A stretch of DNA of 14,729 nucleotides from Propionibacteriaceae bacterium (GTDB taxonomy: Bacteria; Actinomycetota; Actinomycetes; Propionibacteriales; Propionibacteriaceae). Made by a program: the position numbers and the translations under genes. The first letter of the stretch is position 1. Each line of letters begins with the position of its first letter. The notes under the pieces were generated by a model, which saw only the letters and a program-made list of their open reading frames with translations, did not search any database and was not told the origin of the DNA. Below are positions 254 to 14,257 of the stretch, in pieces. The stretch covers positions 1-14,729 of the forward strand of contig JAITSW010000231.1 of NCBI GenBank assembly GCA_031287505.1, given 5' to 3'.

Positions 254-314
254 AGACTCACCAAAGACCCACCCCGATCCAATTAAGAACATGCCACTTT
301 ATGAAAGGAAAACC

Positions 315-1727
315 ATGATTCACCTTATATCTCGCCGCCGCATCGTCGCAGCGGCGATGGCCGGCACCCTAGCCCTCGCGCTGGTTGCCTGCGCACAACC
401 ATCGCCTCCGCCCAGTACTGCGTCCAGTGCATCCGCACCCGGCACCGACGCCAACAACCCGTTCGGAGTAGCCCCCGGGTCTAGCGTCGAGGTCTACGGC
501 TTCGACGGTGGCTTCGGAACCGAATGGCTCAGCTTCGCTGCTGCCGCCGCACAGAAGAATCTGTCCGATGTCACGTTCACTGTGACGCCCACGACCAAAC
601 TCATGACAGAGCTACAGCCGCGCTTCGTGGCGAAGAACCCGCCGGATGTCATCGACAACACTGGTGCCGATGCCATCCCATTTGCCTCGATTATTGACCA
701 GTTGGAGACTCTGGACGACTTGTGGGCAGCCACAAACTATGACGGTGACAAGATTTCCGACGCCGTGTTCGGGGGAGTCGACAAGGCCGGCACATCCGAT
801 GGTAAGTTCATCAGACTGAACTACGCTTTGACGGTGTTTGGACTGTTCCACTCCAAGACGCTATTCGAGGCCAACGGCTGGGAGGCCCCCAAGACGTGGG
901 ACGACCTGGCGACGCTCTGCACCGCAGCCAAGGCAAAGGACAAGTATCTCTTTACGTTCGGCAAGGAAGCCGTCAGCTACTACGGCTGGCTGGTACTGGA
1001 CTCCGCCATCAAACAGGGCGGCATCGGCGTCATGAACGACATCGCCAACCTGAAGCCCGGCGCCTGGTCTGCGCCAGCAGTCAAGGATGCCCTGACGAAG
1101 CTCGAAGCGCTCATTAAGGACGGCTGCATGGTTCCCGGCGGCTCGGGCACCCAGTTCACTCAGGCCCAGGCCCAGTTCTCACAAGAACAGAAGGCCCTGC
1201 TGTACCCGAGCGGTTCCTGGCTCGAATCCGAGATGAAGGATGCCACCGCTCCCGACTTCCAGATGACCATCACGCCATTCCCGTTGTTGGACCCGGCTAC
1301 CGCAGCCATGCCGTACGAAGCCATCCAAGCATCGGGCGCAGAGCCGCTGTCTGTCACGAAGGATGGTGCGAACCCGGCAGGTGGCAAGGAGTTCCTGCGG
1401 GCAGTGCTTTCGAAGGAGGCCGCGACCAACTTCTCGAAGACCACCGGTTCACTGTCGGTCGTCAAGACAGCCGAGATTCCGGCTGACGGGTGGGGATCGT
1501 CGCAACTCGCGTCGTCCATGAGTGCCATGTCCGCCGCTGGCTCCAACGTCTTCGCCTGGATCGGCGACACCTACTCCATCTACTACGGCATTCAGGATTC
1601 CGTGTTGTGGGCGTCGTTCTTGGACGGCTCCATCACCGCCGAGAAGTTCATTGCCGGTGAAGAGGAACTGTCCGCAGCCGCAGCAGCCGATACGTCCATC
1701 ACCAAGATGGTCTACGACTACTCCTGA
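315..1727 (+). CDS. NgcE-like sugar ABC transporter substrate-binding lipoprotein
   Basis: A 470-residue extracellular solute-binding protein of the CUT1 type. The N-terminus has SRRR, a hydrophobic stretch and the lipobox LVAC, with the lipidated Cys at residue 26, so the mature protein should be anchored outside the membrane. The double Arg may indicate Tat export. After a Ser/Pro/Ala-rich linker comes the binding domain, with segments I recognise from actinobacterial NgcE (GlcNAc/diacetylchitobiose binding): PPDVIDNTGADAIPF, LTVFGLFHSKTLFEANGWEAP, YPSGSWLESEMK and MPYEAIQASGAEPL. I chose ATG 315 because AAAGGA lies at a good distance upstream; the in-frame ATG at 291 would only add 8 residues ahead of the signal peptide. 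The next gene starts 1 base after the stop. The true ligand is inferred only as an oligosaccharide, possibly amino-sugar or acetylated. Confidence 0.88.
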   Translation: MIHLISRRRIVAAAMAGTLALALVACAQPSPPPSTASSASAPGTDANNPFGVAPGSSVEVYGFDGGFGTEWLSFAAAAAQKNLSDVTFTVTPTTKLMTELQPRFVAKNPPDVIDNTGADAIPFASIIDQLETLDDLWAATNYDGDKISDAVFGGVDKAGTSDGKFIRLNYALTVFGLFHSKTLFEANGWEAPKTWDDLATLCTAAKAKDKYLFTFGKEAVSYYGWLVLDSAIKQGGIGVMNDIANLKPGAWSAPAVKDALTKLEALIKDGCMVPGGSGTQFTQAQAQFSQEQKALLYPSGSWLESEMKDATAPDFQMTITPFPLLDPATAAMPYEAIQASGAEPLSVTKDGANPAGGKEFLRAVLSKEAATNFSKTTGSLSVVKTAEIPADGWGSSQLASSMSAMSAAGSNVFAWIGDTYSIYYGIQDSVLWASFLDGSITAEKFIAGEEELSAAAAADTSITKMVYDYS

Positions 1728-1728
1728 G

Positions 1729-2721
1729 ATGACAAAACCAACTGCGACGGTGTCGCCGGACAGCCCCCCAAAGGCCGTCCGGCGGCGCCGCCGCCTCACT
1801 TTCGACAAGGCCAGCTTCATGGCCGTGTTCGTGTTACTGCCGCTGGCGGTTTTCACCCTCTTCGAACTGGTTCCGTTGGTGCAGGCGCTCTACTACGCGC
1901 TCACCGACTGGGCCGGATACTCCCCAGACATGAACTTCGTCGGCCTGACCAACTTCGCCGCCATGTTCTCCGACCCGCTCTTTATGAAGTCGCTGCGGAA
2001 CTCGGTGATCCTCGCTGCAGTCGTCCCGACCATCACGCTGGTGTGCTCGTTCGTCATCGCCGCTGTGGTGACCACCGGCGGACCGTCCACCGGTCGCATC
2101 CAGGGACTCAAGGGTTCCGGCTTCTACCGGGTAGTTTCCTTCTTCCCCTACTGCGTCCCGGCCATCGTAATCGGCATCATCTGGTCCCAGATCTATGACC
2201 CACAGCGCGGCCTGCTCAACGGCCTGTTGAGCGCTCTCGGGTTCGACTTTCAAGGGTTCCCCTGGCTCGGCAAGGTCGACACAGCCATGCCCGCCTCAAT
2301 AATGGTGATCATCTGGGGATCGATCGGCTTCTACACTGTCCTGTTCGTAGCTGCCATCAAGGGCATCCCGGCGGAACTCTACGAGGCTGCCCGGATGGAC
2401 GGCGCCGGACGTTTCCGCAGCGCCATCTCCGTGACCCTGCCCAATATGCTCAGTTCGCTGCAAACCGGCTATATCTACCTCGGCCTGATGGCCATCGATG
2501 CCTTCATCTATATGGTCGCCCTGAACCCGCTCGGTGGCCCGGACTACTCAACCTGGACGATGACCCAGAACCTCTACAACACAGCCTTCTTCAAGGGGAA
2601 GTTCGGCTACTCCACCGCACAGGGGGTGGCCCTCGCAATCGTCACCCTGGCCTACGCGGGGATTATCGCTTTGATCTTCCGGCTCGCTCGGGGCCGCGAC
2701 GACGGGACTGATCGCGCATGA
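1729..2721 (+). CDS. Carbohydrate ABC transporter permease (CUT1, MalF/NgcF-like)
   Basis: A 330-residue inner-membrane permease. A basic N-terminal tail (VRRRRRLTF, about 18-25) precedes the first membrane helix, and about six hydrophobic segments follow. The cytoplasmic EAA loop that docks on the ATPase is at residues 219-238 (EAARMDGAGRFRSAISVTLP), with the usual G in the middle. Segments such as RVVSFFPYCVPAIVIGIIW are typical of sugar permeases. ATG 1729 directly follows the binding-protein stop; upstream codons in the same frame overlap the binding-protein gene and are not needed. It forms the translocation channel with the next gene product. No ATP-binding subunit is encoded in this window, so a shared ATPase such as MsiK elsewhere in the genome is likely. 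Confidence 0.9.
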   Translation: MTKPTATVSPDSPPKAVRRRRRLTFDKASFMAVFVLLPLAVFTLFELVPLVQALYYALTDWAGYSPDMNFVGLTNFAAMFSDPLFMKSLRNSVILAAVVPTITLVCSFVIAAVVTTGGPSTGRIQGLKGSGFYRVVSFFPYCVPAIVIGIIWSQIYDPQRGLLNGLLSALGFDFQGFPWLGKVDTAMPASIMVIIWGSIGFYTVLFVAAIKGIPAELYEAARMDGAGRFRSAISVTLPNMLSSLQTGYIYLGLMAIDAFIYMVALNPLGGPDYSTWTMTQNLYNTAFFKGKFGYSTAQGVALAIVTLAYAGIIALIFRLARGRDDGTDRA

Positions 2722-3611
2722 CTACTATTGCCACAACAGCGGCGCCAGCCACAATCGGGCGAAACCGATCACATCGCTCGACAACGGGCGACAAGGTTGT
2801 CGCAGGAGTCAGCCACACCCTGCTCAGCATCTGGACGATCACTGTCATCGTCCCCTTCGCGTGGACCCTGCTCTGCAGCTTCAAAACCACCTCGGAGATT
2901 TTTGCCTCACCATTCGGCCTGCCCGCGCAGTGGAACTTCGACAACTACGTGAAAGCGTGGAGCGATGTTGGCATTGGCAAATACTTCTTCAACACCGTGG
3001 TAGTTGTTGGCTGCGCCCTGGTGCTGGTCATGCTGCTCGGCGCAATGCTGGCATACGCGCTGGCGAGGTTCAAATTCCTCGGAAACCGGCTGATCTACAA
3101 CACCATGCTGGCCGCCATGACCTTCCCTGTCTTCCTGTCCATCGTCCCACTGTTCTTCGTCCTATCCGGCTTCGGCCTGCTGTCGACCAAACCTGGACTC
3201 ATCCTGGTATACGTGGCGTTCGCGTTGCCGTTCACCATGTTCTTCCTCTACTCCTTCTTCAGGCAACTGCCACAAGATGTCTACGAGGCAGCGAAAATCG
3301 ACGGTGCCGGTGAGTGGCGGGCCTTCTTCTCGGTGATGCTGCCGATGGCCTCCCCTGGTATGGCTTCCGTGGCGATCCTCAACTTCCTCGGCCTGTGGAA
3401 CCAGTTCCTGCTGCCGGTGGTGTTGAATGCCAACCCCGAGAACTACGTCCTGTCGCAGGCGATGTCGGTGTTCCAGTCCAAGGCGGGTTATTCAGTGGAC
3501 TTCGGCGCTCTGTTCGCCGCCGTTGTCATGACCGTTCTGCCCGTCTTCATCGTCTACATCGTGTTCCAACGCAAACTGGAAGGCTCCGTCTCTCAAGGCA
3601 CCTTCCGCTGA
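2718..3611 (+). CDS. Carbohydrate ABC transporter permease (CUT1, MalG/NgcG-like)
   Basis: A 297-residue second permease of the sugar importer. Its ATG overlaps the stop of the preceding permease in an ATGA arrangement, so the two are translationally coupled, as expected for a heterodimeric channel. The EAA motif lies at residues 190-209 (EAAKIDGAGEWRAFFSVMLP). Hydrophobic segments include WTITVIVPFAWTLLCSF near the N-terminus and VVMTVLPVFIVYIVFQRKL near the C-terminus. The ending, LEGSVSQGTFR, is close to the usual MalG-family C-terminus, so the gene appears intact. It acts in the cytoplasmic membrane; the substrate is set by the upstream lipoprotein. Confidence 0.9.
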   Translation: MTTIATTAAPATIGRNRSHRSTTGDKVVAGVSHTLLSIWTITVIVPFAWTLLCSFKTTSEIFASPFGLPAQWNFDNYVKAWSDVGIGKYFFNTVVVVGCALVLVMLLGAMLAYALARFKFLGNRLIYNTMLAAMTFPVFLSIVPLFFVLSGFGLLSTKPGLILVYVAFALPFTMFFLYSFFRQLPQDVYEAAKIDGAGEWRAFFSVMLPMASPGMASVAILNFLGLWNQFLLPVVLNANPENYVLSQAMSVFQSKAGYSVDFGALFAAVVMTVLPVFIVYIVFQRKLEGSVSQGTFR

Positions 3612-3655
3612 CTGGCGTGCCACACCTGGCCGCCCTCTGACCGAAAGAATCATCA

Positions 3656-4669
3656 ATGCCTCGTTTTGACCTGCCTCCCGCCGAGCTGCGCACCTACCGT
3701 CCTGAGGTCGCCGAGCCTGCCGACTTCGACGAGTTCTGGGCGATGACGCTGACCGATCACCGGCCAGACCCCGCTCCAGTGATCACCCCATTCGCAACGC
3801 CATTGCGATTGGTGGACGCCTTCGACGTCACTTTCGCCGGGTTCGACGGCCATCCGATCAAGGCGTGGCTGCTGCTTCCGAAGAATGTCTCGGAGCCGCT
3901 GCCTGGCGTGGTGGAATACCTCGGTTACGGCGGCGGACGCAGCGTGCCGGACGAAAGGCTTGCCTGGGTGAGTGCTGGCTACGCCTACTTGGTCATGGAT
4001 ACGCGGAGTCAGGGTGGCGAATGGTGGTCGGGCGGCGCGACCACCGACCCGGTTGGCTCGGGGCCAGCGGTCGCCGGTTGGATGACGCGCGGCATTGAGA
4101 GTCCCGAGACCTACTTCTACCGCCGGGTGTTCACTGACGCAGTACAGGCCGTCGAGGTACTACGCCGCCAGCCGCAGGTGAACCCGGAGCAGGTGGCGGT
4201 GACCGGCTGCAGCCAGGGCGGTGGCATCGCGATCGCGGCAGCGGGGCTGGTCAGCGGATTGGTCGGTGCGATTCCCGACATGCCCTTCCTGTGTCATTTC
4301 GAACGGGCTGTAGGCCTTACCGACCGCGAACCGTTCAACGAGGTGGTTCGCTACCTGTCGGCTCACCGAGGCGCTGAAGCTCAGGTGTTCAAAACGTTGT
4401 CATACTTCGACGGGGTGAACTTCGCAAAGCGGGCTACCGCGCCCGCGTATTTCTCGGTCGGACTCTTAGACCCGGTTTGCCCTCCGTCCACCATCTTCGC
4501 GGCGCGCAACCACTGGGGCGGACCCTCCGAGATTGTCGAATACCCGTTCAACGAACACGACGGCGGCGAGTGGTGGCGACGGGCCGACTGGCTGGCATCG
4601 CGGCTGTCCGCAGACTCCCCGACCTGGTCCGCAGACTCCTCGTCCCTATCCGCAAACTCCCTCTCCTGA
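3656..4669 (+). CDS. Acetyl esterase, AXE1 (acetylxylan esterase/cephalosporin-C deacetylase) family
   Basis: A 337-residue alpha/beta hydrolase of the AXE1 (carbohydrate esterase 7) family, which removes acetyl groups from xylo-oligosaccharides and related small esters. The nucleophile elbow is GCSQGGG with Ser186. The likely acid is Asp272 in LLDPVCPPS and the base His301 in NEHDGG, an order and spacing close to the characterised family triad. The oxyanion-side segment MDTRSQGGEWW (about 114-124) is also typical. No signal peptide is visible, so it should act in the cytoplasm on imported oligosaccharides, which fits its place 44 bases after the permease. Family members are about 320 residues. 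The excess here is a Ser/Ala/Asp tail (residues 318-337) encoded by a 21-base tandem repeat. Substrate choice (xylan, pectin or other acetylated sugar) is not shown by the sequence. Confidence 0.87.
   Translation: MPRFDLPPAELRTYRPEVAEPADFDEFWAMTLTDHRPDPAPVITPFATPLRLVDAFDVTFAGFDGHPIKAWLLLPKNVSEPLPGVVEYLGYGGGRSVPDERLAWVSAGYAYLVMDTRSQGGEWWSGGATTDPVGSGPAVAGWMTRGIESPETYFYRRVFTDAVQAVEVLRRQPQVNPEQVAVTGCSQGGGIAIAAAGLVSGLVGAIPDMPFLCHFERAVGLTDREPFNEVVRYLSAHRGAEAQVFKTLSYFDGVNFAKRATAPAYFSVGLLDPVCPPSTIFAARNHWGGPSEIVEYPFNEHDGGEWWRRADWLASRLSADSPTWSADSSSLSANSLS
4607..4669 (+). repeat. Three tandem 21-base repeats forming the esterase C-terminus
   Basis: Three consecutive 21-base units start at 4607, 4628 and 4649. 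Each begins TCCGCAGACTCC or TCCGCAAACTCC, and they diverge in their second halves. The unit length keeps the reading frame and encodes the heptads SADSPTW, SADSSSL and SANSLS plus stop, so the last unit contains the stop codon. This is direct sequence evidence for in-frame repeat expansion at the end of the gene. Copy number may vary between strains. Confidence 0.85.
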
Positions 4670-4788: not shown

Positions 4789-4857
4789 GAGCTGGGAGGC
4801 TCGGGAGATGATCGGTGATATCGGCGCGATGGTGCGCCCTAACGGAAAGTGAGTCCT

Positions 4858-6255
4858 GTGTCCAGGAGAAAAATAGATTCGGTAGCGTACCTGGATTCGG
4901 GCGCCTTGATCTTCGGTCATGCGCCGCATCCGGTGTCAACCAGAAGCGGTTTAGAAATTGGTGGCGGGTTGGTGTACCCGGACATCAATTTCACATTGCC
5001 TCCGATGTTGGTCACCGAAGACAGCCTTAGTGAGGTGATTGGCAACTATCGGGAAATCACCGAAGGGATTTGTCGCCGCGCGGCTGAACTGGGGGCGCCT
5101 GGGTTCGTGGCCGAGATTGAGACCCTGCCGCCGATGACTTTCCACCCCGAGTGGGGCGTGGAGGTCTGCCGCACAGTACTGGAGGTGATTGGCGAATACG
5201 AGGCGAAGGAAGGGATTCACGCCGCCGTTCGGATGACCCCGAACGATATCCGTGAGGGACGCGAGTTGGAACACATGTGGCACGGATCGCATTGGGACAA
5301 CATCATGGCGACTTTCGAGGGTGCCGCTGAGATCGGTGCGGAACTGCTGGCAATTGAGTCGGTCGGGGGCAAGGAAGTTCACGACGAGGCGGTGATGTAC
5401 TGCGATTTGCCGAAGTCTATCTTCGCGCTCAGCGTGCTGGGTGCGCTCGACATGGAGCGACTGTGGACGGCGATCTGCGAAATTGCCGACCGGACCGGCA
5501 CGATAGCTGCGGGCGATACCGCGTGCGGGTTCGCGAATACGGCGATGGTGCTGGCCGAGCGGAACTACATTCCGCGGGTATTCGCAGCGACAGTCCGGGT
5601 CGTGTCAGCAGTGCGGAGCCTGGTGGCGGTCGAGTGCGGCGCTAAAGGTCCGCACAAGGACTGTGGCTACGAGGGCATCTATGTGAAGGCGATGACCGGA
5701 ATCCCGATCTCTATGGAGGGACGGACAGCGGCCTGCGCGCACCTGTCACCCGTCGGCAACATCGCGGCATGCGCAGCCGACCTGTGGAGCAACGAGTCAA
5801 TCCAGAACATCAAGCTGCTGGCCGGGCCAGCACCAACAGTGTCGTTCGAGCAGTTGGCGTACGACTGTCGGCTGCTCAACACCGCCAGTGCGCGGAGCGC
5901 GGAGACAGCGCTGCTGCTACGTGACCTGCACGCAGACTCGGATTCCCGGCTGGACCCGCAGGCGTATGTGCTGCGTCCCGATGTGGCGGTCCAAATCTCC
6001 AAAGAACTGGTGCAGGTCGAAGGCGACTACGAGCGCGGCAAGCTGGCCGCGAAACTCGCCCTCGACGTAATGCGGCAGGCTCACCAAAGCGGTGAGTTGT
6101 TGCTCGATGAGCGGGAGGAGTCTTGGCTCGACAACTTGTCGTACGCGGCGGACGACCTGCCCGCCACCGCCGAGGAGCTCACCCAGGAAATGTCTGATTC
6201 GTGTGAGAACTATGACCCAATGAAATATGATCTGAAGAAGGTAGGAGGACGTTAA
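4858..6255 (+). CDS. mtaB: Methanol:corrinoid methyltransferase, MtaB-like
   Basis: About 465 residues, matching the full length of MtaB, the zinc enzyme that cleaves the C-O bond of methanol and moves the methyl group to Co(I) of the corrinoid protein MtaC. Counted from GTG 4849, the zinc ligands of the Methanosarcina enzyme (Glu164, Cys220, Cys269) have clear counterparts: Glu170 in AIESVGGKE, Cys226 in GDTACGFANTAM and Cys272 in GPHKDCGYEG. The segments GIPISMEGRTAACAH and DLWSNESIQ are also MtaB-like. The frame is open from GTG 4849, but I prefer GTG 4858 because GGAAAGTGAG at 4844-4853 then sits at normal ribosome-binding distance. There is no in-frame amber codon, unlike the pyrrolysine methylamine methyltransferases. 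Its stop overlaps the next gene's start. Methanol is the family substrate; a related methoxyl compound cannot be excluded. Confidence 0.9.
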   Translation: MSRRKIDSVAYLDSGALIFGHAPHPVSTRSGLEIGGGLVYPDINFTLPPMLVTEDSLSEVIGNYREITEGICRRAAELGAPGFVAEIETLPPMTFHPEWGVEVCRTVLEVIGEYEAKEGIHAAVRMTPNDIREGRELEHMWHGSHWDNIMATFEGAAEIGAELLAIESVGGKEVHDEAVMYCDLPKSIFALSVLGALDMERLWTAICEIADRTGTIAAGDTACGFANTAMVLAERNYIPRVFAATVRVVSAVRSLVAVECGAKGPHKDCGYEGIYVKAMTGIPISMEGRTAACAHLSPVGNIAACAADLWSNESIQNIKLLAGPAPTVSFEQLAYDCRLLNTASARSAETALLLRDLHADSDSRLDPQAYVLRPDVAVQISKELVQVEGDYERGKLAAKLALDVMRQAHQSGELLLDEREESWLDNLSYAADDLPATAEELTQEMSDSCENYDPMKYDLKKVGGR

Positions 6256-6893
6256 TGTCCATATTGGAAAACTTGTCGGAAGCGGTACAGAAAGGCCGCG
6301 CAAAGGATGTGTTGACGCTCATCGAGGAAGGACTTGCGGAGGGCTTGTCAGCTCAGCGGTTGCTTGATGAGGGGCTGCTGAAAGGCATGAGTCTGCTCGG
6401 CGTCCGGTTCAAGAACAACGAGGTGTTCGTCCCCGAAGTGTTGATCGCCGCCCGCGCATTGAATAAAGGCTCAGAGGCATTGAAGGCGCAGTTGATCGCC
6501 GACGGCGTTGAGGCCAAGGGCAAAGCTGTGATCGGCACCGTGAAGGGCGACCTGCACGACATCGGCAAGAACCTGGTCAAGATGATGCTGGAAGGCGCAG
6601 GCTTTGATGTTGTCGACCTTGGGGTGGACGTCCCCGACGAGAAGTTCGTAGCGGCTATTCAGGAACAGACCCCGGACGTCTTGTTGCTGTCAGCGTTGCT
6701 GACGACCACGATGGGCCAACTGGGGGCTGTGATCGACGCGATCAAGGCAGCCGGACTGCGCGAACAGGTCAAGATTATGGTCGGTGGAGCACCGATCACT
6801 CATGGATTCGCTACCGAAATCGGAGCGGACGGCTACTCACCTGACGCCGCCTCCGCAGCCGAACTCGCCACCAGCCTGCTTGTAGCGGCCTGA
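6255..6893 (+). CDS. mtaC: Methanol-type corrinoid protein, MtaC-like
   Basis: A 212-residue cobalamin-binding protein that carries the methyl group between the two methyltransferases. Residues 1-85 form the four-helix cap domain, with typical GMSLLGVRFKNNEVFVPEVL. The Rossmann B12 domain follows, with the base-off signature D99-L-H101-D-I-G104, so His101 should be the lower cobalt ligand. SALLTTTM (146-153) and VGGAPIT (176-182) are the other loops that hold the corrinoid tail. GGAGG lies just ahead of the ATG, and TAATG couples it to the mtaB stop. The 1:1 pairing with MtaB and the family match make this assignment firm. Confidence 0.92.
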   Translation: MSILENLSEAVQKGRAKDVLTLIEEGLAEGLSAQRLLDEGLLKGMSLLGVRFKNNEVFVPEVLIAARALNKGSEALKAQLIADGVEAKGKAVIGTVKGDLHDIGKNLVKMMLEGAGFDVVDLGVDVPDEKFVAAIQEQTPDVLLLSALLTTTMGQLGAVIDAIKAAGLREQVKIMVGGAPITHGFATEIGADGYSPDAASAAELATSLLVAA

Positions 6894-6907
6894 GACCGGA
6901 CCACTGG

Positions 6908-7030
6908 ATGCCTCGCGAGATGGACACCGCAGACAGCGCAGCTTTGACCGGCCATGACGAGGGTCAACGCCGTCGCTGGATCGCCGAGTTGGCGCTGCTG
7001 ATCACCAGTGACCCGCGAGGCCTCGGATAG
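6908..7030 (+). CDS. Possible 40-residue small protein between mtaC and the second methyltransferase
   Basis: The 151-base gap after mtaC is almost filled by an open frame of 40 codons, from ATG 6908 to TAG 7028-7030, ending 1 base before the AAAGGAG ribosome site of the next gene. The product starts MPREMDTADS and has a basic/hydrophobic middle (GQRRRWIAELALLI, 19-32). I recognise no family, and the ribosome site ahead of it is weak. The gap is unusual in an otherwise tightly packed operon, which is the main reason to list it. It may be a non-coding spacer. Confidence 0.25.
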   Translation: MPREMDTADSAALTGHDEGQRRRWIAELALLITSDPRGLG

Positions 7031-7044
7031 TAAAGGAGCTTGAT

Positions 7045-8190
7045 ATGAGCGAATTGGACACGGCGAGGATGAGCAGCGACTTTGGCTTGGCCGAGCAACA
7101 GGGTCGAGAGGCCAAACTTCTTCAGGTGTATCAGCGCGAGAACCCGGCAGTGGCATTGGTCAACATGCAGCCGTTCTATGCCACGCCGATTTTCCCGCTC
7201 GTGGAGTGCATGGCGGACTTCACGAAGATGGAAGCCCAAGCCCGCCGGATGATGGCGCAGATGGCTTCGTCTCACAGCGATACGCCGGTCAATGTGGCCA
7301 CTTTCATCACCATCGGCATGGTGGCGGAAGCGTTCGGCGCTTCGGTGGAGTTCCTTCCAACCGGAGAAGTCGCAGTGCTCCCGGCGTTCGACGACATCAG
7401 TGCGGTACGTCACCTCAAACCGACACCAGTCCGGCAACTCGAGTACTACAGCAAAATGCGCGCCTGGGTGGACTACTCCCAAAGCCACATCGGTACGGAC
7501 TACCCGTTTTGGGGCCTCGATATCCAGGGTCCGTTCTCGGTCGCGGACACCATTATGGGCACCACCAACCTCATGCTTGCCATGTATGACGACCCAGAAT
7601 TGGTCCACAAGTTGCTGCAGATGATCACCGACGTGTCAATCGAACTGCACTCGGATCACCTCGCCCAGGCCGAACATCCAGGCTTCCCCGGACGGAACTT
7701 TCCGTCAATCTCGGAGAATGTCGGCCTGGTGGTGTCCGAGGACACTCCCATGATCATGCTGTCTCCAGACATGTACCGCGAGTTCTCCCTGCCGTACGTC
7801 AACCAGTTGAGCCAGCATTTCGGTGGACTGAGCGTGCACTGCTGTGGCGACTGGAGACTCAAGGCCGACTGCCTGCTGGAGATTGACCAGATTCGTGCAG
7901 TGCAATTGCATGGGGGGCCGGGTGAGTTTCCGCTGCCCAGCGAAACCGAGGAAGATAGCGTGTTCGCCCAAGTGGGGCAGCAGATCTGCACCCTGGTCGA
8001 CTCCAATGTCATTTCTCGGTCGGATGAGTGGGCAAAGCGCCCATTGGACTTCCACGAAGAGTACCTGCTGCCAAGGCTTACGCTCAACCCACCAAACTGG
8101 TTGATTGTGGATATCCCGGAGGCCGATCCTGCCACGAACGACAGCGAACTCGTCGCTGCGACTAAGGCGGGCCTCGCGGCGAGGCTCTGA
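7045..8190 (+). CDS. URO-D/MtaA-family methyltransferase (methylcorrinoid to acceptor)
   Basis: A 381-residue protein of the uroporphyrinogen-decarboxylase-like methyltransferase family, which takes the methyl group from the methylated corrinoid protein. The acceptor is coenzyme M in methanogens (MtaA) and tetrahydrofolate in bacteria, so tetrahydrofolate is the likely acceptor here. Family features include WGLDIQGPFSVADTIMG (156-172) and the zinc motif His265-x-Cys267 in SVHCCGDW. The third zinc Cys of MtaA normally comes late in the barrel, near a GCG-type loop. Here the matching end reads WLIVDIPEADPAT with no Cys, and the last Cys is residue 315. AAAGGAG at 7032-7038 supports ATG 7045. 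It lies between mtaC and the regulator. Function as the second methyltransferase is inferred from family and position. Confidence 0.82.
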   Translation: MSELDTARMSSDFGLAEQQGREAKLLQVYQRENPAVALVNMQPFYATPIFPLVECMADFTKMEAQARRMMAQMASSHSDTPVNVATFITIGMVAEAFGASVEFLPTGEVAVLPAFDDISAVRHLKPTPVRQLEYYSKMRAWVDYSQSHIGTDYPFWGLDIQGPFSVADTIMGTTNLMLAMYDDPELVHKLLQMITDVSIELHSDHLAQAEHPGFPGRNFPSISENVGLVVSEDTPMIMLSPDMYREFSLPYVNQLSQHFGGLSVHCCGDWRLKADCLLEIDQIRAVQLHGGPGEFPLPSETEEDSVFAQVGQQICTLVDSNVISRSDEWAKRPLDFHEEYLLPRLTLNPPNWLIVDIPEADPATNDSELVAATKAGLAARL

Positions 8191-8210
8191 CCCCGCGCCC
8201 ACCAGCGATC

Positions 8211-9425
8211 ATGGACACCAACGACGTTCAGACCCGGCGCACGGCCTCCGACTGGGCGGCCGTGACCGGTGTCCACGCTGGAGTGTTCAGTTTCATAGAT
8301 CGCGCCTTGTTGCCTGAGGCGGAGAACAGTTTCTGCGCGTCGAGATGCCCACTAGCCACCGATGGGCGCTGCGACCCGCAGGTTGCACACCGGTTCGGCA
8401 GCTACGAGGCCGAGCGCTGGGGCGGCCAGTACATCTTCTACTGTCCGGCTGGCCTGGTCTTCGTCGCCACCCTCACCAACGAGCAGGGAGCGCCCAGCTA
8501 CGGACTGGTCACCGGCCCGCTGGTGATGGGCGAACTGGATGATCTGCTCGATGATCTCGACCCTGAGCTGCCCGAACTGGTCGCCGTCCTGAAAGTACGG
8601 ACCCCTGCCGACGTGGGCGCGTTGGCCCGCGTTCAGGAAGCCTTGTGCCGATCACTGTCCAGCAATGCCCCACCAATCGCTCAGACTGGACCAGCTGAAG
8701 AGCTGGGCCTCGCGGGAACCGTCGAGCCGCTGGAAGGTGTCGCGCATTACCCGTTCGACGTGGAGAAGCGCCTGGTCGAGATGATCCGGCGTGGCGACCG
8801 GGCTGGTGCGTCCCAGCTGATCAACCAGCTACTGGCAGTGCTCTACCTGGCGAGTTCTGGGGATTTCTCGCGGTTGCGGCAGGGCGCGACCGAACTGATT
8901 ACTTTGTTCTCGCGAGCGGCGATCGACGGCGGCGCGGACACCGCCTCGATCTTCGGGGAGAAACGTGTCATGGATCGTCGGCTTTCGGGGTTCACGACCC
9001 TGGACGAGTTGTCGGGGTTCCTGGTGACGGTGTTCAACCGGTTCGTCGGCTACGTGTTCGACTTCTCACGTTTCCAGCACGCCAACATGCTGCGGCGGAC
9101 AGTGAGCTACGTCCGGGCGCACTACGCCGAGCGCATCAGCTTGGCTGACGTGGCCCGCGAAGTGTGGATGTCGCCGAGCTACCTCAGCACGGTGTTCTCT
9201 GCCGAGATGGGCATGAGCTTCACGGCTTATGTCCAGTCGGTGCGGATCGACAAAGGCAAGGAGTTCCTGATCAGTACCCATAAGACCATCGCCGAGGTTG
9301 CGGCAGCTACCGGGTTCTCCGACCAGAGCTATTTCACCAAGGTATTCACCAAGGCGGTCGGAGTGTCGCCAACTCAATTCCGCCGACAGGAGGTGGTTGA
9401 TCATGGACAGGGTGGTCGCAACTGA
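8211..9425 (+). CDS. PocR-domain AraC-family transcriptional regulator
   Basis: A 404-residue regulator. Residues about 12-115 resemble the PocR sensor domain, with FCASRCPLATDGRC (Cys42, Cys46, Cys54) and IFYCPAGLVFVATL (Cys78), the Cys-rich pattern of that domain. PocR was proposed to sense small hydrocarbon derivatives and is found in regulators of propanediol and methyl-compound pathways. A helical middle region (about 180-290) follows. The AraC DNA-binding domain is at about 295-392, with ISLADVAREVWMSPSYLSTVFS as the first helix-turn-helix and TIAEVAAATGFSDQSYFTKVF as the second. No strong ribosome site precedes ATG 8211. The gene sits inside the operon, so it probably senses the methyl substrate and activates the operon, perhaps at the direct repeat 4715-4755. 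Confidence 0.88.
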   Translation: MDTNDVQTRRTASDWAAVTGVHAGVFSFIDRALLPEAENSFCASRCPLATDGRCDPQVAHRFGSYEAERWGGQYIFYCPAGLVFVATLTNEQGAPSYGLVTGPLVMGELDDLLDDLDPELPELVAVLKVRTPADVGALARVQEALCRSLSSNAPPIAQTGPAEELGLAGTVEPLEGVAHYPFDVEKRLVEMIRRGDRAGASQLINQLLAVLYLASSGDFSRLRQGATELITLFSRAAIDGGADTASIFGEKRVMDRRLSGFTTLDELSGFLVTVFNRFVGYVFDFSRFQHANMLRRTVSYVRAHYAERISLADVAREVWMSPSYLSTVFSAEMGMSFTAYVQSVRIDKGKEFLISTHKTIAEVAAATGFSDQSYFTKVFTKAVGVSPTQFRRQEVVDHGQGGRN

Positions 9426-10911
9426 GTCTGGCCTGTTGGCAGATGCTTTGGCTGCAGCCGGTCACCATCTGCCGATGCCGTGCCGAGGCAGACACACCTG
9501 CGGCAAATGCGGCGTGTACGTCGCCGGGGAGGTCGAGCAGCCCACCCCGGTGGAGGCGGCGCTGCTGGCCCGGACACAACAGCCCGAACTGCCCGGCTAC
9601 ACCCATCGGTTAGCCTGCCTTGCCCGAATCCACGGCGAGGTGAACGCCGTCGCATCCAGCATCAGCGGCGTAGCCGTCGCCGATGTTGGCATGAGGCTGG
9701 CCAGCTACGACGGGGATGCACCCGACACGTTGGGGTGCGCGATTGACATTGGGACGACGACCGTCACCGTATTTCTTTTCCGGCTCGGTGACCGAGAACG
9801 GCTCGCGGACGTCAGCCAACTCAACCACCAAGCGGTACACGGCGCTGACGTGCTGAGCCGCATCAATGCCGCGAACTCGAACGGGGTTGCGGCCCTGCAG
9901 AAGCTGATCGTCGACCAGGTGGCCTCCATGTTGGAGCAGACGCTCCAGAAAGCGGCCGCGCGTCCGTCCGACGTCACCCGAGTCACCATCGCCGGCAACA
10001 CCACAATGCTGCACCTACTGACGGGCCGCGATGTGCGCTCGCTGGGGGTGTACCCGTTCACCCCCGAGACTCTGTTTGGCGACACCCTGCCCGCGTCTAC
10101 CCTTTTCCAAGACCTGACGCATGCCGAACTGTACCTGCCGCCCGGAATCTCGACTTACGTTGGCCCCGACATTACTTGCGGGCTGCTGGCGACCGGGCTG
10201 GACGGCAACGGTCGGCCCGAACTACTGGTCGATGTTGGCACCAACGGTGAGATGGTCTTGGCAGCCGACGGGCTGTGGTGCTGCTCGACCGCTGCCGGAC
10301 CCGCGTTCGAGGGCGCCGAGATTTCGGCTGGAATGCCAGCGCTGCCCGGCGCGATTGAGGACGTCTGGGTCGAAGGTGACCACCTCGGCTTCGCGACCAT
10401 CGGCCACAAATCCGCCAAAGGAGTGTGCGGCACCGGGCTGATCAGCGCGGTCGACGCCCTGCTCGATCTGGGCGTGATCGATGAGACCGGTGCTATGAAC
10501 ACCAGCACGGTTGAGCTAGGCAGCAGCCGTATCAGCCTCACCCAGGCCGATGTTCGCAAACTCCAACTCGCCAAAGCAGCGGTGGCCGCTGGCCTCGACA
10601 CCCTGCTCCACGAAGCCGGACTCACCCCCTCCGACCTCACCGCGCTGCATCTGGCAGGCGGGTTCGGCAGCTACCTGCAACCCCGCCCTGCTGTTGGCAT
10701 CGGTCTCATCCCGCAAGCGCTGGTGGACAAGACCGACTCGGCGGGCAACACCGCACTGACCGGCGCAGTCCTGCTCACGCTGTCGACTGCGGCCCGCCGC
10801 GCAGCGGAGGAACGCGCCGCACAAGCCCGCGAGGTGGCGCTGGCGACTCACCCGGTGTTCACCGACCGCTACATCGAGAACATGGCTTTCCGGGAGGAGT
10901 CCGATGACTGA
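9403..10911 (+). CDS. Corrinoid protein re-activase (RACE): 2Fe-2S ferredoxin plus ASKHA ATPase (DUF4445)
   Basis: A 502-residue ATP-dependent reductase that returns inactive Co(II) corrinoid to Co(I). The N-terminal 2Fe-2S domain has Cys27, Cys33, Cys36 and Cys72 (C-x5-C-x2-C-x35-C). The ASKHA-type ATPase follows: CAIDIGTTTVTVFLF (112-126), IAGNTTMLHLLTG (197-209), LLVDVGTNGEM (274-284), CSTAAGPAFEGAEISAG (294-310) and LHLAGGFGSYLQ (415-426). Characterised members are often above 600 residues; this one lacks much of the linker and middle region, so it is a compact form. I chose ATG 9403 because AGGAGG at 9388-9393 precedes it and the ferredoxin domain begins right after. The start lies inside the regulator gene (23-base overlap), implying coupled translation. 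Its partner is expected to be the MtaC-like protein. Confidence 0.9.
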   Translation: MDRVVATESGLLADALAAAGHHLPMPCRGRHTCGKCGVYVAGEVEQPTPVEAALLARTQQPELPGYTHRLACLARIHGEVNAVASSISGVAVADVGMRLASYDGDAPDTLGCAIDIGTTTVTVFLFRLGDRERLADVSQLNHQAVHGADVLSRINAANSNGVAALQKLIVDQVASMLEQTLQKAAARPSDVTRVTIAGNTTMLHLLTGRDVRSLGVYPFTPETLFGDTLPASTLFQDLTHAELYLPPGISTYVGPDITCGLLATGLDGNGRPELLVDVGTNGEMVLAADGLWCCSTAAGPAFEGAEISAGMPALPGAIEDVWVEGDHLGFATIGHKSAKGVCGTGLISAVDALLDLGVIDETGAMNTSTVELGSSRISLTQADVRKLQLAKAAVAAGLDTLLHEAGLTPSDLTALHLAGGFGSYLQPRPAVGIGLIPQALVDKTDSAGNTALTGAVLLTLSTAARRAAEERAAQAREVALATHPVFTDRYIENMAFREESDD

Positions 10912-11434
10912 CCTCGTGCAAGCGGCGCTCGACTTCGGGTTCTCTCACGCTGCCTTGCTGGACCCGGCAAGGCTGCGGGTCCTGGTGGAGGTTCGGCAGA
11001 TGTGCGCCGCCGACCGCTGCCAGGCGTTCAACCGCTCGTGGTCCTGCCCGCCAGCCTCCGGCACCCTCGAAGAGAGCCGTGCGACCATCGCCTGCTACCA
11101 CACCGGGCTGATCGTCCAGACCACCGCCGTACTCGACGACTCCTACGACTACGAGACCATGATGGCCGCCGGAGAAGAACAAAAACAGCGCCTGATCGAC
11201 TTCCGTGAGGAACTCTGGCCGTCCTACCCCGACCTGATCACCCTCGGCAACGGCGCCTGCACTATCTGTAGCCTCTGCACCTACCCGAACGCTCCGTGCC
11301 GCTACCCCGACCGGATGGTGCAGTCGATGGAAGCCTTCGGCCTGGTCGTCTCCGACGTCTGCACCGACAACAACCTCGGCTACTACTACGGCCCGAGCAC
11401 CATCACCTACACCGGCTGTTATCTGCTCGCCTAG
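10904..11434 (+). CDS. DUF2284 predicted metal-binding (Fe-S-like) protein
   Basis: A 176-residue cysteine-rich protein of the DUF2284 family, which I recall as common near corrinoid methyltransferase and re-activase genes but without a proven function. It has 10 Cys. A ferredoxin-like group is Cys119-x2-Cys122-x2-Cys125-x6-Cys132 (ACTICSLCTYPNAPC), and an N-terminal group is Cys34, Cys39 and Cys48 with the family signature WSCPPASG. The end, TYTGCYLLA, is also family-like. The ATG overlaps the re-activase stop by 8 bases, so the two are coupled. A role in electron delivery to the re-activase, or in cobalt/corrinoid handling, is inferred from context only. Confidence 0.8.
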   Translation: MTDLVQAALDFGFSHAALLDPARLRVLVEVRQMCAADRCQAFNRSWSCPPASGTLEESRATIACYHTGLIVQTTAVLDDSYDYETMMAAGEEQKQRLIDFREELWPSYPDLITLGNGACTICSLCTYPNAPCRYPDRMVQSMEAFGLVVSDVCTDNNLGYYYGPSTITYTGCYLLA

Positions 11435-11629: not shown

Positions 11630-12385
11630 ATGCAGCCGAACGCAAATCACTCATCGAGTGTCGAACGAGCCTTCGAACTTATTGGGATCGTCGCTGCTGC
11701 CGGTCCGCAAGGAATACAGCTCAGCGGTCTTGCCAAGAGAGCGCATCTCGCCGTGTCAACCTGTCATCGTTATGCGACGACACTGCTCGATCTGGCGGTT
11801 CTTGATCGTGACGCAGCCGGAAACTTTCGGCTTGGAATAGGGTTGGTGGCGCTGGCTGGGCGCTACTTGGAAGAAGATTCGCTGCGGGCTACTGCCCACC
11901 CTCACCTGGTTGAGTTGTCGCAAATCTCCGGTGAAACCGTCCACCTGGGTACCTTGGCTGGAGATCACATCGTCTATATCGACAAGATCGAAAGTGATAA
12001 GTCCGTCAGGCTGGTCTCGCGGATAGGTGCTCAAGCTCCACTGCACTGCACCTCTATGGGGAAGGCGATTCTCGCCGCACTTCCGGAGACTGATCGGGAA
12101 CGTAGCATTGCGGACGATAATGAAATACGCACCCCGCACACGCTGGTAGGTGACGCCTTGCGGGAAGAACTAAACCTGATTCGCACCTGCGGTTGGGCAA
12201 TCGACGACCAAGAAAATGAAGAAGGGGTGCGCTGCATCGGTGCCGCCATTATCTCTACCTCGGGCACTCCAGTAGGGGCCTTGAGTATCTCGGCACCGGC
12301 CAACCGATTCTCTCGGCAGGACTGCGAACTGCTGGCTCCTCAAGTCACCGCTGCAGCCAGAGATATCGGACGGCGAATCGGCTAA
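11630..12385 (+). CDS. IclR-family transcriptional regulator
   Basis: A 251-residue regulator with the standard two domains. The winged helix-turn-helix is at about 11-70 (VERAFELIGIVAAAG, then LAVSTCHRYATTLLDLAVL as recognition helix). The effector domain has the family signature, with YIDKIES at 116-122, RIGAQAPLHCTSMGKAILA at 131-149 and GVRCIGAAI at 199-207 (Cys202). AAAGGGCGG precedes ATG 11630. IclR relatives such as KdgR repress uronate and 2-keto-3-deoxygluconate genes and are released by pathway sugars. Here the gene leads the aldolase and kinase, so KDG or a related keto-acid is the likely effector (inference). Its G+C looks lower than that of the methyltransferase operon. Confidence 0.92.
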   Translation: MQPNANHSSSVERAFELIGIVAAAGPQGIQLSGLAKRAHLAVSTCHRYATTLLDLAVLDRDAAGNFRLGIGLVALAGRYLEEDSLRATAHPHLVELSQISGETVHLGTLAGDHIVYIDKIESDKSVRLVSRIGAQAPLHCTSMGKAILAALPETDRERSIADDNEIRTPHTLVGDALREELNLIRTCGWAIDDQENEEGVRCIGAAIISTSGTPVGALSISAPANRFSRQDCELLAPQVTAAARDIGRRIG

Positions 12386-12411
12386 CCGCAAGACCTTTGA
12401 CCACGGACTTC

Positions 12412-12429
12412 AAATGCAAAGGAGCATTT
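12412..12429 (+). promoter_or_regulatory. Hairpin with the ribosome-binding site in its loop
   Basis: AAATGC (12412-12417) pairs with GCATTT (12424-12429), leaving AAAGGA as the loop, followed by three more T. AAAGGAG (12418-12424) is the ribosome site of the 26-codon ORF starting at 12433. The structure could present or mask the site, or act as a weak attenuator. The stem is only 6 pairs, four of them A-T. Confidence 0.35.
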
Positions 12430-12432
12430 TTT

Positions 12433-12513
12433 ATGAACGCCACAGCCACCTTGGAAGGGCAAAACCTGGGCAACAGTGATGTGCTCGGTTTGGTGATTGG
12501 AAACCCAGAATGA
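12433..12513 (+). CDS. 26-residue leader ORF coupled to the aldolase
   Basis: ATG 12433 has a strong AAAGGAG site 8 bases upstream and opens a 26-codon frame (starts MNATATLEGQ, ends LGLVIGNPE). Its TGA (12511-12513) overlaps the aldolase ATG at 12510 as ATGA. The aldolase has no ribosome site of its own, so ribosomes finishing this ORF would be the natural source of its initiation. I recognise no family. It may be a regulatory leader peptide, or the stub left by an in-frame deletion of a larger gene once located here. Confidence 0.45.
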   Translation: MNATATLEGQNLGNSDVLGLVIGNPE

Positions 12514-13142
12514 TGAACGACTTGATTGACAGATTGGAAAAACTGAGAGTTGTGCCGGTTGTTGTCATTGATGACGCCAATGCTGCCCAGGAACTCGGAC
12601 AGGCCGTGCTGCAGGGAGGGCTGCCGGTTCTTGAAGTCACCTTCCGGACTCAGGCTGCACCTTCCGCAATCAAAATCCTCTCTCAAAACCCGGAACTTTT
12701 CGTCGGGGCTGGCACGGTGCTGAACGCTGATCAAGTCGATACTGCCGTACAAGCTGGCGCGAGTTTTATTGTTTCGCCAGGGTTTAGTCTCGCGGTCATT
12801 AATCGCTGTCGCGAACTGGGGGTGCCGGTGTTGCCCGGTGTCGCTACCGCCAGCGACATGATGGCTGCTATCGCCGCCGGGGTCGAAATCGTAAAGTTTT
12901 TCCCAGCAGGCACGTTGGGAGGCCCCGGCGCCATCAAGGATTATGCTGCGCCTTTCCCAGGGATTCGCTTCGTACCTACCGGTGGCATTACCACGCAAAA
13001 TGTGGCGCAATATCTTTCCATCCCGCAGGTGCTCGCGGTCGGAGGAAGCTGGATGGTGCCGCGTTCGGCTATCGCGGAGGGTGATTTTGCGAAGATCGCC
13101 ACTTTGGTTAGCCAGACGGTAACGCAAGTGAGGGGGCTGTAA
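12510..13142 (+). CDS. eda: KDPG/KHG aldolase (2-keto-3-deoxy-6-phosphogluconate aldolase)
   Basis: A 210-residue class I aldolase that splits KDPG into pyruvate and glyceraldehyde 3-phosphate, the last step of the Entner-Doudoroff and uronate routes. The Schiff-base lysine is Lys129 in IVKFFPAGTLGG. The catalytic Glu42 and phosphate-binding Arg46 lie in LEVTFRT, and GAGTVLN (66-72), VSPGF (88-92) and PTGGI (156-160) line the TIM-barrel site. These match the E. coli enzyme's Glu45, Arg49 and Lys133 in order and spacing. Starts at 12510 and 12513 (ATGATG) are equivalent. The kinase follows after 2 bases and supplies its substrate. Activity on 2-keto-4-hydroxyglutarate or 6-phospho-2-keto-3-deoxygalactonate is also possible. 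Confidence 0.93.
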   Translation: MMNDLIDRLEKLRVVPVVVIDDANAAQELGQAVLQGGLPVLEVTFRTQAAPSAIKILSQNPELFVGAGTVLNADQVDTAVQAGASFIVSPGFSLAVINRCRELGVPVLPGVATASDMMAAIAAGVEIVKFFPAGTLGGPGAIKDYAAPFPGIRFVPTGGITTQNVAQYLSIPQVLAVGGSWMVPRSAIAEGDFAKIATLVSQTVTQVRGL

Positions 13143-13144
13143 AA

Positions 13145-14257
13145 ATGCACAAAGAGTCCGTAATCACCCTCAAACCTCGTTCAGCTTGTGACTTCGACAT
13201 TGTTTCGTTGGGTGAAGTCATGCTGCGTCTCGATCCCGGTGAGGGTCGAATCCGAACTGCTCGGCAGTTCACTGCCTGGGAAGGTGGCGGCGAATACAAC
13301 GTTTCGCGCGGGCTGTCTCGGTGTTTCGAGAAGCGAGCCGCAGTCATCACCGCCCTTGCCGATAACGAGATCGGCAGACTCATCGAAAACTTTATTCTCG
13401 CCGGTGGCGTTGACACTTCATATATCGCTTGGCTGCCGTATGACGGTATTGGCAAGCAGATACGTAACGGACTGAACTTCACTGAACGAGGATTTGGTCT
13501 CCGCGGAGCGGTTGGAGTTTCTGATCGGGGACACACCGCCGTTAGCAAAATGACCCTCGAAGATGTGAATCTTGAAGAACTCTTCGAGAAAAGGGGAGTG
13601 CGTTGGCTGCACACCGGAGGTATTTTTGCCTCACTGTCAACAGAAACAGCACTGCTGGCCGAGCAGGTCATGGCAGCAGCTAAAGCTTCAGGCACCGTAA
13701 TCTCCTACGATCTGAATTACCGACCGAGCCTTTGGCAGGCCCAGGGTGGGCAACACCAAGCCCAAGAAATAAACAATCGTCTCGCCCAATACGTTGATGT
13801 CATGATCGGTAACGAAGAGGACTTCACTGCCTGTCTCGACCTCAAGGTCGAAGGTGTTGATGAAAACCTGACCACGCTGCCCGTCGATTCTTTCAAGCGG
13901 ATGATCGTGACCGCTGCCGAAAGATACCCGAATTTCAAGGCCATCGCCACGACTTTGCGCACTGTGCGAACCGCCACCAGGAACGATTGGAGTGCCATCG
14001 CCTGGTCCAAGACGCAAGGTTTTGCGCAGGCTACCGACCGCCCAGATCTAGAAATCCTCGATCGAGTGGGCGGCGGGGACTCGTTTGCCTCCGGCCTGAT
14101 CTACGGACTAATGGATTTTGATGACATCAACAGCGCCGTCGAGTTTGGTGCCGCCCACGGTGCCCTGGCCATGACCACTCCCGGAGACACCTCAATGGCG
14201 ACCCTGGCCGAAGTGAAACGGCTAGTAGCAGGCAGCAGCGCCCGAGTTCGCCGCTAG
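13145..14257 (+). CDS. kdgK: PfkB-family sugar kinase, probable 2-keto-3-deoxygluconate kinase
   Basis: A 370-residue ribokinase-like kinase expected to phosphorylate KDG to KDPG for the aldolase encoded just upstream. Features are SLGEVMLRLDPG (21-32), the sugar-binding GGGEYNVSRGL (47-57), YDLNYRPSLW (188-197), which is typical of KDG kinases, IGNEEDF (221-227) and the ATP/anion-hole signature DRVGGGDSFASG (306-317), with catalytic Asp312. AGGGGG ahead of ATG 13145 serves as ribosome site, and the gap to the aldolase is 2 bases. The pairing with an aldolase under an IclR regulator supports KDG over other sugars. The short Arg-rich end (SARVRR) is unremarkable. Confidence 0.87.
   Translation: MHKESVITLKPRSACDFDIVSLGEVMLRLDPGEGRIRTARQFTAWEGGGEYNVSRGLSRCFEKRAAVITALADNEIGRLIENFILAGGVDTSYIAWLPYDGIGKQIRNGLNFTERGFGLRGAVGVSDRGHTAVSKMTLEDVNLEELFEKRGVRWLHTGGIFASLSTETALLAEQVMAAAKASGTVISYDLNYRPSLWQAQGGQHQAQEINNRLAQYVDVMIGNEEDFTACLDLKVEGVDENLTTLPVDSFKRMIVTAAERYPNFKAIATTLRTVRTATRNDWSAIAWSKTQGFAQATDRPDLEILDRVGGGDSFASGLIYGLMDFDDINSAVEFGAAHGALAMTTPGDTSMATLAEVKRLVAGSSARVRR

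What the first reader, a model, noticed from the sequence alone, without database searches (positions are those of the whole stretch)
4858..11434. Complete MtaBC-type methanol methyltransferase operon in an apparent actinobacterium
Six genes in one direction supply C-O cleavage (MtaB-like), corrinoid carrier (MtaC-like), second methyltransferase (URO-D family), corrinoid re-activase, a DUF2284 Fe-S-like helper and a PocR-AraC sensor. The system is best known in methanogenic archaea and acetogenic Firmicutes. A self-contained copy in a high-GC actinobacterial setting, with intact zinc and cobalamin motifs, suggests an undescribed methylotrophic or methyl-salvage capacity there.
Basis: partly seen in the sequence, partly recalled or inferred. 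Interest (0 to 1): 0.8.

Follow-up and report, generated by a model that had tools for sequence, protein, structure and literature searches.

The report
Methanol methyltransferase operon in Propionibacteriaceae bacterium
A bacterium of the Propionibacteriaceae carries genes that probably strip the methyl group off methanol with vitamin B12, but the acetogen marker genes that were looked for were not found, so where the methyl group goes is an open question.

Summary
The six genes are there, in one direction (4849-11434): MtaB, a corrinoid protein, a URO-D-fold protein, a PocR-like AraC regulator, a RACo-type reactivase and DUF2284. MtaB is genuine: PF12176 537.9 bits, zinc ligands of M. barkeri MtaB kept. 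The host is Propionibacteriaceae by inference from kinship. (1) 'Complete' is not supported: the URO-D protein is no recognisable MtaA (39.4 bits at best), belongs to a small subfamily (53 listed, itself included), and its closest group lacks the third zinc cysteine, as reported for O-methyl rather than thiol URO-D enzymes. (2) Wood-Ljungdahl markers are missing (FTHFS 0/14, CdhC 0/14 genomes), and the five genomes with near full-length MtaB show only two pterin proteins each, read as FolP and MetH. (3) Bacterial mtaB genes and actinobacterial methyl-O methyltransferase genes are already in print (PMC10805028, passages). The window's MtaB lies in a clade whose named members are all Actinomycetota, sister to Oscillospiraceae MtaBs; this suggests transfer, then use as a methyl-salvage module with an unknown acceptor.

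The parts
4849..6255 (+). mtaB: methanol--corrinoid methyltransferase; zinc ligands E170 (codon 5356), C226 (5524), C272 (5662)
   Evidence: PF12176 537.9 bits; only PDB relative at E <= 0.001 is 2i2x_A, E 3.7e-90; ligand columns E/C/C in 123 of 123 aligned MtaB rows
6255..6893 (+). mtaC-like corrinoid protein, DLHDIG at residue 99
   Evidence: PF02310 and PF02607; the 14 NCBIfam models matched are all below their cut-offs, best MtgC_2 216.5 of 370; motif
7045..8190 (+). URO-D-fold protein of a small subfamily; H265, C267 kept, D356 and P358 where most relatives have Gln and Cys; probable O-methyl methyltransferase of unknown substrate
8211..9425 (+). AraC-type regulator with PocR-like sensor
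   Evidence: HTH_18 84.1 bits; PocR 21.8 bits, cut-off 23.9
9403..10911 (+). RACo-type ATP-dependent reductive activator of corrinoid proteins (ORF opens at TTG 9298, likely start ATG 9403 with AGGAGG ahead)
   Evidence: RACo_C_ter, Raco_middle, Fer2; start and Fer2 motif
10904..11434 (+). DUF2284, cysteine-rich predicted metal-binding protein (10 Cys), possible electron-transfer helper
   Evidence: PF10050 145.6 bits; cysteines; in 10 of 82 MtaB loci within 8 kb
312..4669 (+). upstream sugar-type ABC importer (SBP 312-1727, permeases 1729-2721 and 2718-3611) and AXE1 acetyl xylan esterase (3656-4669); same strand, similar third-position GC, functional link unproven
11630..14257 (+). downstream IclR regulator (11630-12385), KDPG aldolase (12510-13142), KDG-kinase-like PfkB (13145-14257); different third-position GC, so probably a separate unit

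Best explanation
It is a regulated methanol methyl-capture module. MtaB (zinc enzyme) binds methanol and passes its methyl group to Co(I) of the corrinoid protein encoded next to it; RACo, perhaps helped by DUF2284, uses ATP and low-potential electrons to rescue the cobalt when it oxidises; the PocR-like AraC protein switches the operon on. The URO-D protein is most likely a second, O-methyl-specific methyltransferase that shares the corrinoid protein, not the acceptor enzyme. The methyl group is used for C1/methionine supply or oxidised as a side substrate, not for acetogenesis. Shown here: gene identity, intact motifs, gene order, absence of the tested Wood-Ljungdahl markers. Inferred: methanol as substrate (from the family), roles of DUF2284 and the regulator, role of the URO-D protein, fate of the methyl group, and a fermentative host (from the bacterial family, recalled).
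For: MtaB: Pfam and PDB match with all zinc ligands. Corrinoid protein with DxHxxG. Within 8 kb of MtaB in 82 loci: MtaC-like gene in 35, PocR-type regulator in 23, RACo in 17, DUF2284 in 10 (window counted; many loci are cut by contig ends). Clade of 27 rows (SH-aLRT 100; named members all Actinomycetota, other rows unnamed proteins) nested among Bacillota and Spirochaetota. FTHFS 0/14, CdhC 0/14, MTHFR 14/14, MetH activation domain 12/14 genomes; two Pterin_bind hits each in G000, G160, G162, G164 and G187, read as FolP and MetH from score and frame length. Cys-to-carboxylate change in the nearest URO-D group, read with the rule in PMC10418091 (sections 9 and 10 read).
Against: NCBIfam MtaB equivalog cut-off is not reached (406.8 of 720); identity to M. 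barkeri MtaB is 39.3%; no acetogen MtaB known to me to have been assayed is in the trees. Substrate is untested. Sugar-gene neighbours leave room for another methyl donor. G000 is 71% complete, so an acceptor enzyme may lie in the missing part. G160 and G164 carry other URO-D proteins with His-Cys-Cys-like motifs (read by eye) that could be acceptor enzymes, though a like protein is also in G142, which has no MtaB. The ligand reading is not clean: 13 of 53 URO-D relatives lack Cys at column 358, and 4 of these have Gln, not a carboxylate, at 356.
Confidence: 0.62

Rival explanations
1. The real methyl donor is an O-methylated sugar, sugar acid or other plant methoxy compound taken up by the neighbouring ABC importer; MtaB and the URO-D protein are demethylases for it.
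For: Sugar ABC importer and AXE1 upstream, KDG/KDPG genes downstream. Other MtaB loci sit by sugar genes: L012 (binding protein, ABC ATPase, permease), L067 (galactonate dehydratase, KDPG aldolase, then MtaB), L043 (IolE-like and IolG-like genes after MtaB), L032 (GH127). No CE8 pectinesterase in 14 genomes to make methanol.
Against: Neighbours of MtaB are very mixed: 146 Pfam families among 106 neighbours scanned, none with more than 5 members, and no background control was run. The KDPG block has a different third-position GC, 0.57-0.60 against 0.73-0.87. The zinc ligands and 76 columns in all are kept between M. barkeri MtaB and at least 97% of 123 rows.
Confidence: 0.15
2. Methanol-to-methionine route (a sub-case of the best explanation): methyl-MtaC hands the methyl to homocysteine through MetH or a thiol-type URO-D enzyme.
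For: No pterin enzyme beyond those read as FolP and MetH in the five genomes with near full-length MtaB; MetH activation domain in 12 of 14 genomes. MtaB genes in other phyla sit in sulfur amino-acid loci: Rrf2, O-acetylhomoserine sulfhydrylase or CysK within 8 kb in 17 of 82 loci, only 3 of which also show an MtaC-like gene; L021 has MtaB next to OAH sulfhydrylase, a MetH without activation domain, and MetF. L088/G162 has MtaB beside a URO-D protein with a His-Cys-Cys-like motif and a Met_synt_B12-like gene.
Against: No methionine gene was found next to the window operon. MetH is also present in the eight relatives without MtaB, so no need is evident. MetE-type PF01717 hits are few (3 of 14) and not tied to MtaB. 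No background rate was computed for the Rrf2/CysK neighbours.
Confidence: 0.3
3. Acetogenic or folate-linked methylotrophy, with the URO-D protein as second methyltransferase.
For: MTHFR in 14 of 14 genomes; the URO-D model is as close to M. mazei MtaA as to uroporphyrinogen decarboxylase.
Against: FTHFS and CdhC found in 0 of 14; URO-D protein only 22.9-39.4 bits against MtaA-type models with cut-offs 235-400; third zinc Cys lacking in its nearest group.
Confidence: 0.08

Closest known systems
MtaBC methanol:corrinoid methyltransferase of Methanosarcina barkeri (PDB 2i2x)
   Same: MtaB family, zinc ligands, corrinoid partner
   Different: 39.3% identity; no recognisable MtaA beside it; RACo-type reactivase
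MtaABC of acetogens (Moorella thermoacetica, Acetobacterium woodii; PMC13391211, passages)
   Same: bacterial MtaB with its own corrinoid protein
   Different: there MtaA (29.7 kDa) hands the methyl to tetrahydrofolate and the Wood-Ljungdahl pathway; here no such protein was recognised, and FTHFS and CdhC were not found
Type 1 mlp gene clusters (PMC10418091, sections 9 and 10)
   Same: corrinoid protein, reactivase, URO-D-family protein, no folate methyltransferase in the cluster
   Different: those hold at least two kinds of URO-D protein, nearly all His-Cys-Cys, and are proposed to act on methyl-sulfur/selenium; the window has one URO-D protein with a carboxylate near the third place, plus MtaB
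Bacterial mtxB genes of Stordalen Mire incl. Actinobacteriota (PMC10805028, passages)
   Same: methyl-O type methyltransferase genes in Actinobacteriota
   Different: peat lineages; relation of those genes to the window's clade was not tested

Membership tests
MtaB (PF12176) | Full-length profile match above gathering cut-off | tested here: met
   537.9 bits, cut-off 25, profile 2-459 of 460
MtaB (PF12176) | Zinc ligands Glu164, Cys220, Cys269 (ligand numbers recalled) | tested here: met
   E170, C226, C272 aligned
MtaB equivalog NF040651 (MtaB_Meth) | Score above curated cut-off | tested here: not met
   406.8 of 720 bits; I take this model to be built for methanogen-type MtaB, so it bears on subgroup, not on the Pfam family
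MtaB, methanol-specific | Methanol-dependent methylation of its corrinoid protein | not testable with these tools
   needs assay
Acetogen MtaABC system | Own methyl-corrinoid:tetrahydrofolate methyltransferase (pterin-binding) | tested here: not met
   none among the window's genes scanned; two Pterin_bind hits in G000 and in each of the four other genomes with a near full-length MtaB, read as FolP and MetH; G000 is incomplete
Acetogen (Wood-Ljungdahl) | FTHFS and CODH/ACS | tested here: not met
   0 of 14 for each of PF01268 and PF03598; other pathway genes were not searched; G000 is incomplete
MtaA / soluble CoM methyltransferases | MtaA-type model score and His-Cys-Cys zinc site | tested here: not met
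   39.4 of 244, 31.5 of 235.4 and 22.9 of 400 bits; H265, C267, but D356/P358 where 40 of 53 have Cys at 358
Type 1 mlp gene cluster | Mlp2 plus Mlp3 (His-Cys-Cys URO-D proteins) | tested here: not met
   one URO-D gene in the window, the only one hit in the incomplete G000, without a His-Cys-Cys site
RACo | Raco middle and C-terminal ASKHA domains with 2Fe-2S domain | tested here: met
   PF17651, PF14574, PF00111

The most novel reading that the evidence does not exclude
Many MtaB-family enzymes of anaerobes that are not acetogens are assimilatory: methanol (and, through the odd URO-D enzyme, a second O-methyl compound) is a methyl source for methionine rather than an energy source, with MetH or a thiol-type URO-D protein as acceptor. 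The window would be the Propionibacteriaceae form, and the MtaB genes without MtaC beside OAH sulfhydrylase, CysK, MetH or MetF in Clostridia and Spirochaetes the other form.
Probability: 0.25. Interest if true: 0.7.

Novelty: new variant of a known kind. Interest (0 to 1): 0.42.

Why it matters
Methanol from plant matter (pectin, as PMC13391211's abstract says) is usually booked to methanogens and acetogens in anoxic places. A bacterium that captures its methyl group without the Wood-Ljungdahl pathway would be a competing sink and would leave a concrete biochemical gap: which enzyme takes the methyl from methyl-MtaC when no folate methyltransferase can be recognised. The wider pattern, MtaB genes without MtaC in sulfur amino-acid loci, makes the question testable in several phyla.

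Tried and rejected
Pectin idea: KDG kinase, KDPG aldolase, a KdgR-like IclR (140 bits, below cut-off) and AXE1 suggested a pectin locus that makes and captures methanol. CE8 pectinesterase was found in 0 of 14 genomes, UxaC in 5 of 14, not in G000, and the third-position GC breaks before the KDG block, so I do not claim it.

Conserved sugar context across the family: a Pfam tally of 106 neighbouring proteins gave no dominant family. I chose those 106 by hand from the 400 neighbours of 220-1199 aa within 6 kb counted; they come from loci L002-L032 (L003, L026 and L030 not represented), L040 and L088, so most loci after L032 were not in the tally. No background control was run for any neighbour count.

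Dedicated acetogen-type MtaA among neighbours: a profile made from five partial MetH sequences found corrinoid proteins and one MetH-like protein (L021) but no separate pterin enzyme; the matches lay mainly on the corrinoid part of the profile, so this is weak.

URO-D protein against solved structures: no match as a single sequence; as a profile only weak ones, the best to a HemE (E 0.0007) and to M. mazei MtaA (E 0.045). The predicted model is equally close to MtaA and to uroporphyrinogen decarboxylase, so it does not decide function. Ligand geometry could not be measured because coordinates are not returned.

Trees: 'quick' method only, SH-aLRT without bootstrap; L066 and L067 left out of the second tree, as were MtaB rows under 400 aa and all but the first 40 proteins from both. 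The M. barkeri outgroup has a very long branch, so the root is unsure. The printout was cut before its last rows; all rows are seen. Acetogens with assayed MtaB were not recovered by name; the listings named Anaerotalea, Vallitalea, Clostridium formicaceticum and Petroclostridium. MtaB of G240/G447 was not put in a tree.

Literature: 10 paper searches; none of the titles and abstract starts listed described MtaBC in Propionibacteriaceae. Papers not opened were not read; of those opened only sections 9 and 10 of PMC10418091 were read, passages of the others.
Full report
Observation. MtaB matches PF12176 over its whole length (537.9 bits) and its only solved relative at E <= 0.001 is M. barkeri MtaB 2i2x_A. 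In an alignment of 123 MtaB rows the zinc ligand columns are E, C, C in all 123 (ligand numbers recalled, letters checked on the chain). The corrinoid protein carries DLHDIG and RACo carries CRGRHTCGKC. The PocR sensor domain is just under Pfam's cut-off (21.8 of 23.9 bits). Genes overlap or lie close, with ribosome-binding-like sequences before mtaC, the URO-D gene, RACo and DUF2284; promoter and terminator scans add nothing beyond chance.

Host. The window is contig C204 of an incomplete genome, 71.4% complete. Genomes of the same GTDB family include three whose MtaB contigs have exactly the lengths of named Propionibacteriaceae records, so the host family is Propionibacteriaceae by inference. 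MtaB occurs in 7 of 198 genomes of the family, two of these only as short fragments (G192, G056), and in 3 of 396 genomes drawn across the phylum, own genome included. The nearest named locus is an Actinomycetes MAG (L002, 75.7% identity); its code Emb289 stands for the termite Embiratermes neotenicus (PMC7024585, passages). Unnamed proteins reach 81%. The habitat of the window's own genome is not known.

Origin. In both trees the window's MtaB lies in a 27-row clade (SH-aLRT 100). All its named members are Actinomycetota; the rest are database proteins without an organism name. Its sister is a group of four rows, two Oscillospiraceae MAGs and their database copies. Bacillota and Spirochaetota surround it, which fits transfer into the actinobacterial line. 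Other actinobacterial MtaBs fall elsewhere: L063 (Coriobacteriales), and L088 of the same genus, which groups with Bacteroidota sequences. G240 and G447, another family of the phylum, have MtaBs that score higher in Pfam (646 and 650 bits), start much like the methanogen protein, and are followed by a corrinoid gene and a URO-D gene; they were not put in a tree. So MtaB seems to have entered Actinomycetota several times.

What is missing. In acetogens the second methyltransferase MtaA, 29.7 kDa, hands the methyl to tetrahydrofolate (PMC13391211, passages). I searched 14 genomes, six with a PF12176 match (G192 only partial) and eight without, chosen from the 198. FTHFS and CdhC were found in none; MTHFR in all; the MetH activation domain in 12 of 14, G000 and G192 being the two without; MetE-type PF01717 in 3, not in G000. 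Each of the five genomes with a near full-length MtaB has two Pterin_bind hits, which by score and frame length look like FolP and MetH; the MetH-like one of G000 lies in a 671-aa frame on contig C26. The eight genomes without MtaB have three such hits each, two of them FolP-sized. So no folate-linked acceptor was recognised. G000 is incomplete, but G160, G162 and G164 are 96-99% complete.

The URO-D protein. It scores 39.4 bits at best against methylcobalamin:CoM methyltransferase models with cut-offs of 235-400. A search listed 53 proteins at E <= 1e-3 including itself, the nearest other at 51%. Among the URO-D loci of the 14 genomes BLAST finds only a partial 30% match in G187 and a 27% one in G162 besides itself. 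Its model (pLDDT 90.7) has the URO-D/MtaA fold without preference. H265 and C267 are kept in 53 of 53. At column 358, 40 of 53 have Cys. The window has D356 and P358, and its four nearest full-length relatives have Glu at 356 and no Cys at 358. Of the 13 without that Cys, seven have Asp or Glu at 356, four have Gln, and two are distant. Kountz and Balskus state that His-Cys-Cys marks S/Se-methyltransferases of this superfamily and that in O-methyltransferases one or both Cys are replaced by carboxylates or by non-binding residues (PMC10418091). I therefore read the protein as a second O-methyl enzyme. This is an alignment-based inference; that D356 binds zinc was not shown.

Context in relatives. 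Of 82 MtaB loci (80, the window, and L088), 35 have an MtaC-like gene, 23 a PocR-type regulator, 17 RACo, 17 a URO-D gene of the main cluster, 11 CobW and 10 DUF2284 within 8 kb; contig ends make these lower bounds. Seventeen have Rrf2, OAH sulfhydrylase or CysK, and only 3 of these also an MtaC-like gene. L021 joins MtaB with OAH sulfhydrylase, a MetH lacking the activation domain and MetF. L067 joins MtaB with galactonate dehydratase and KDPG aldolase. No background rate was computed.

Reading. The window most likely encodes methanol capture by MtaB/MtaC with RACo-driven repair, in a bacterium without the tested Wood-Ljungdahl markers, and with an unidentified methyl acceptor. The upstream sugar importer and esterase share its third-position GC (0.73-0.87 for SBP to DUF2284) but the KDG block downstream does not (0.57-0.60), so only the former could plausibly belong with it. 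Methanol as substrate rests on family membership alone.

Novelty. Bacterial MtaB is widespread (6797 relatives among 7999 scored candidates). PMC10805028 reports bacterial mtxB genes across 19 phyla, methanol-type among them, and methyl-O gene expression by Actinobacteriota (passages). What is left is a variant: MtaBC with an aberrant URO-D partner and no recognised acceptor in Propionibacteriaceae.

Noticed in passing
L005, L007, L009, L020, L021, L028, L030, L042, L057, L060, L068 and others: MtaB genes, mostly without an MtaC-like gene nearby, beside Rrf2, OAH sulfhydrylase or CysK; in L021 also a MetH without activation domain and MetF. Suggests methanol-fed methionine synthesis.
   Followed up: partly
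L067:251-7388: Halanaerobiaceae MtaB preceded by galactonate dehydratase, KDPG aldolase and a kinase-like gene (by eye; no NCBIfam match), recalling the KDG genes next to the window operon.
   Followed up: partly
window 11434-11630: Step in third-position GC (0.73-0.87 before, 0.57-0.60 after), a likely boundary between two gene blocks of different history.
   Followed up: no
L120 and L121 (G447, G240): Another actinomycetal family carries an MtaB whose start resembles methanogen MtaB, with an MtaC-like gene and a URO-D gene directly after it.
   Followed up: partly
L088:7025-10084 (G162): Same genus as the window but MtaB of the Bacteroidota-like clade, beside a URO-D protein with a His-Cys-Cys-like motif and a Met_synt_B12-like gene.
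   Followed up: partly
L008:315-10252: MtaB surrounded by four URO-D-cluster genes and one of cluster 14.
   Followed up: no
L036:8785-10014, L066:7705-8934, L079:10796-13519: Cluster 14, about 410 aa: the two members scanned (L036, L079) have no Pfam match; the L079 members match the window URO-D protein by BLAST. Near MtaB in four loci.
   Followed up: no
G000, G160, G162, G164, G187: A high-scoring URO-D hit (356-367 bits, presumably HemE) is in 7 of 8 genomes without MtaB and in G192, but in none of the five with near full-length MtaB.
   Followed up: no
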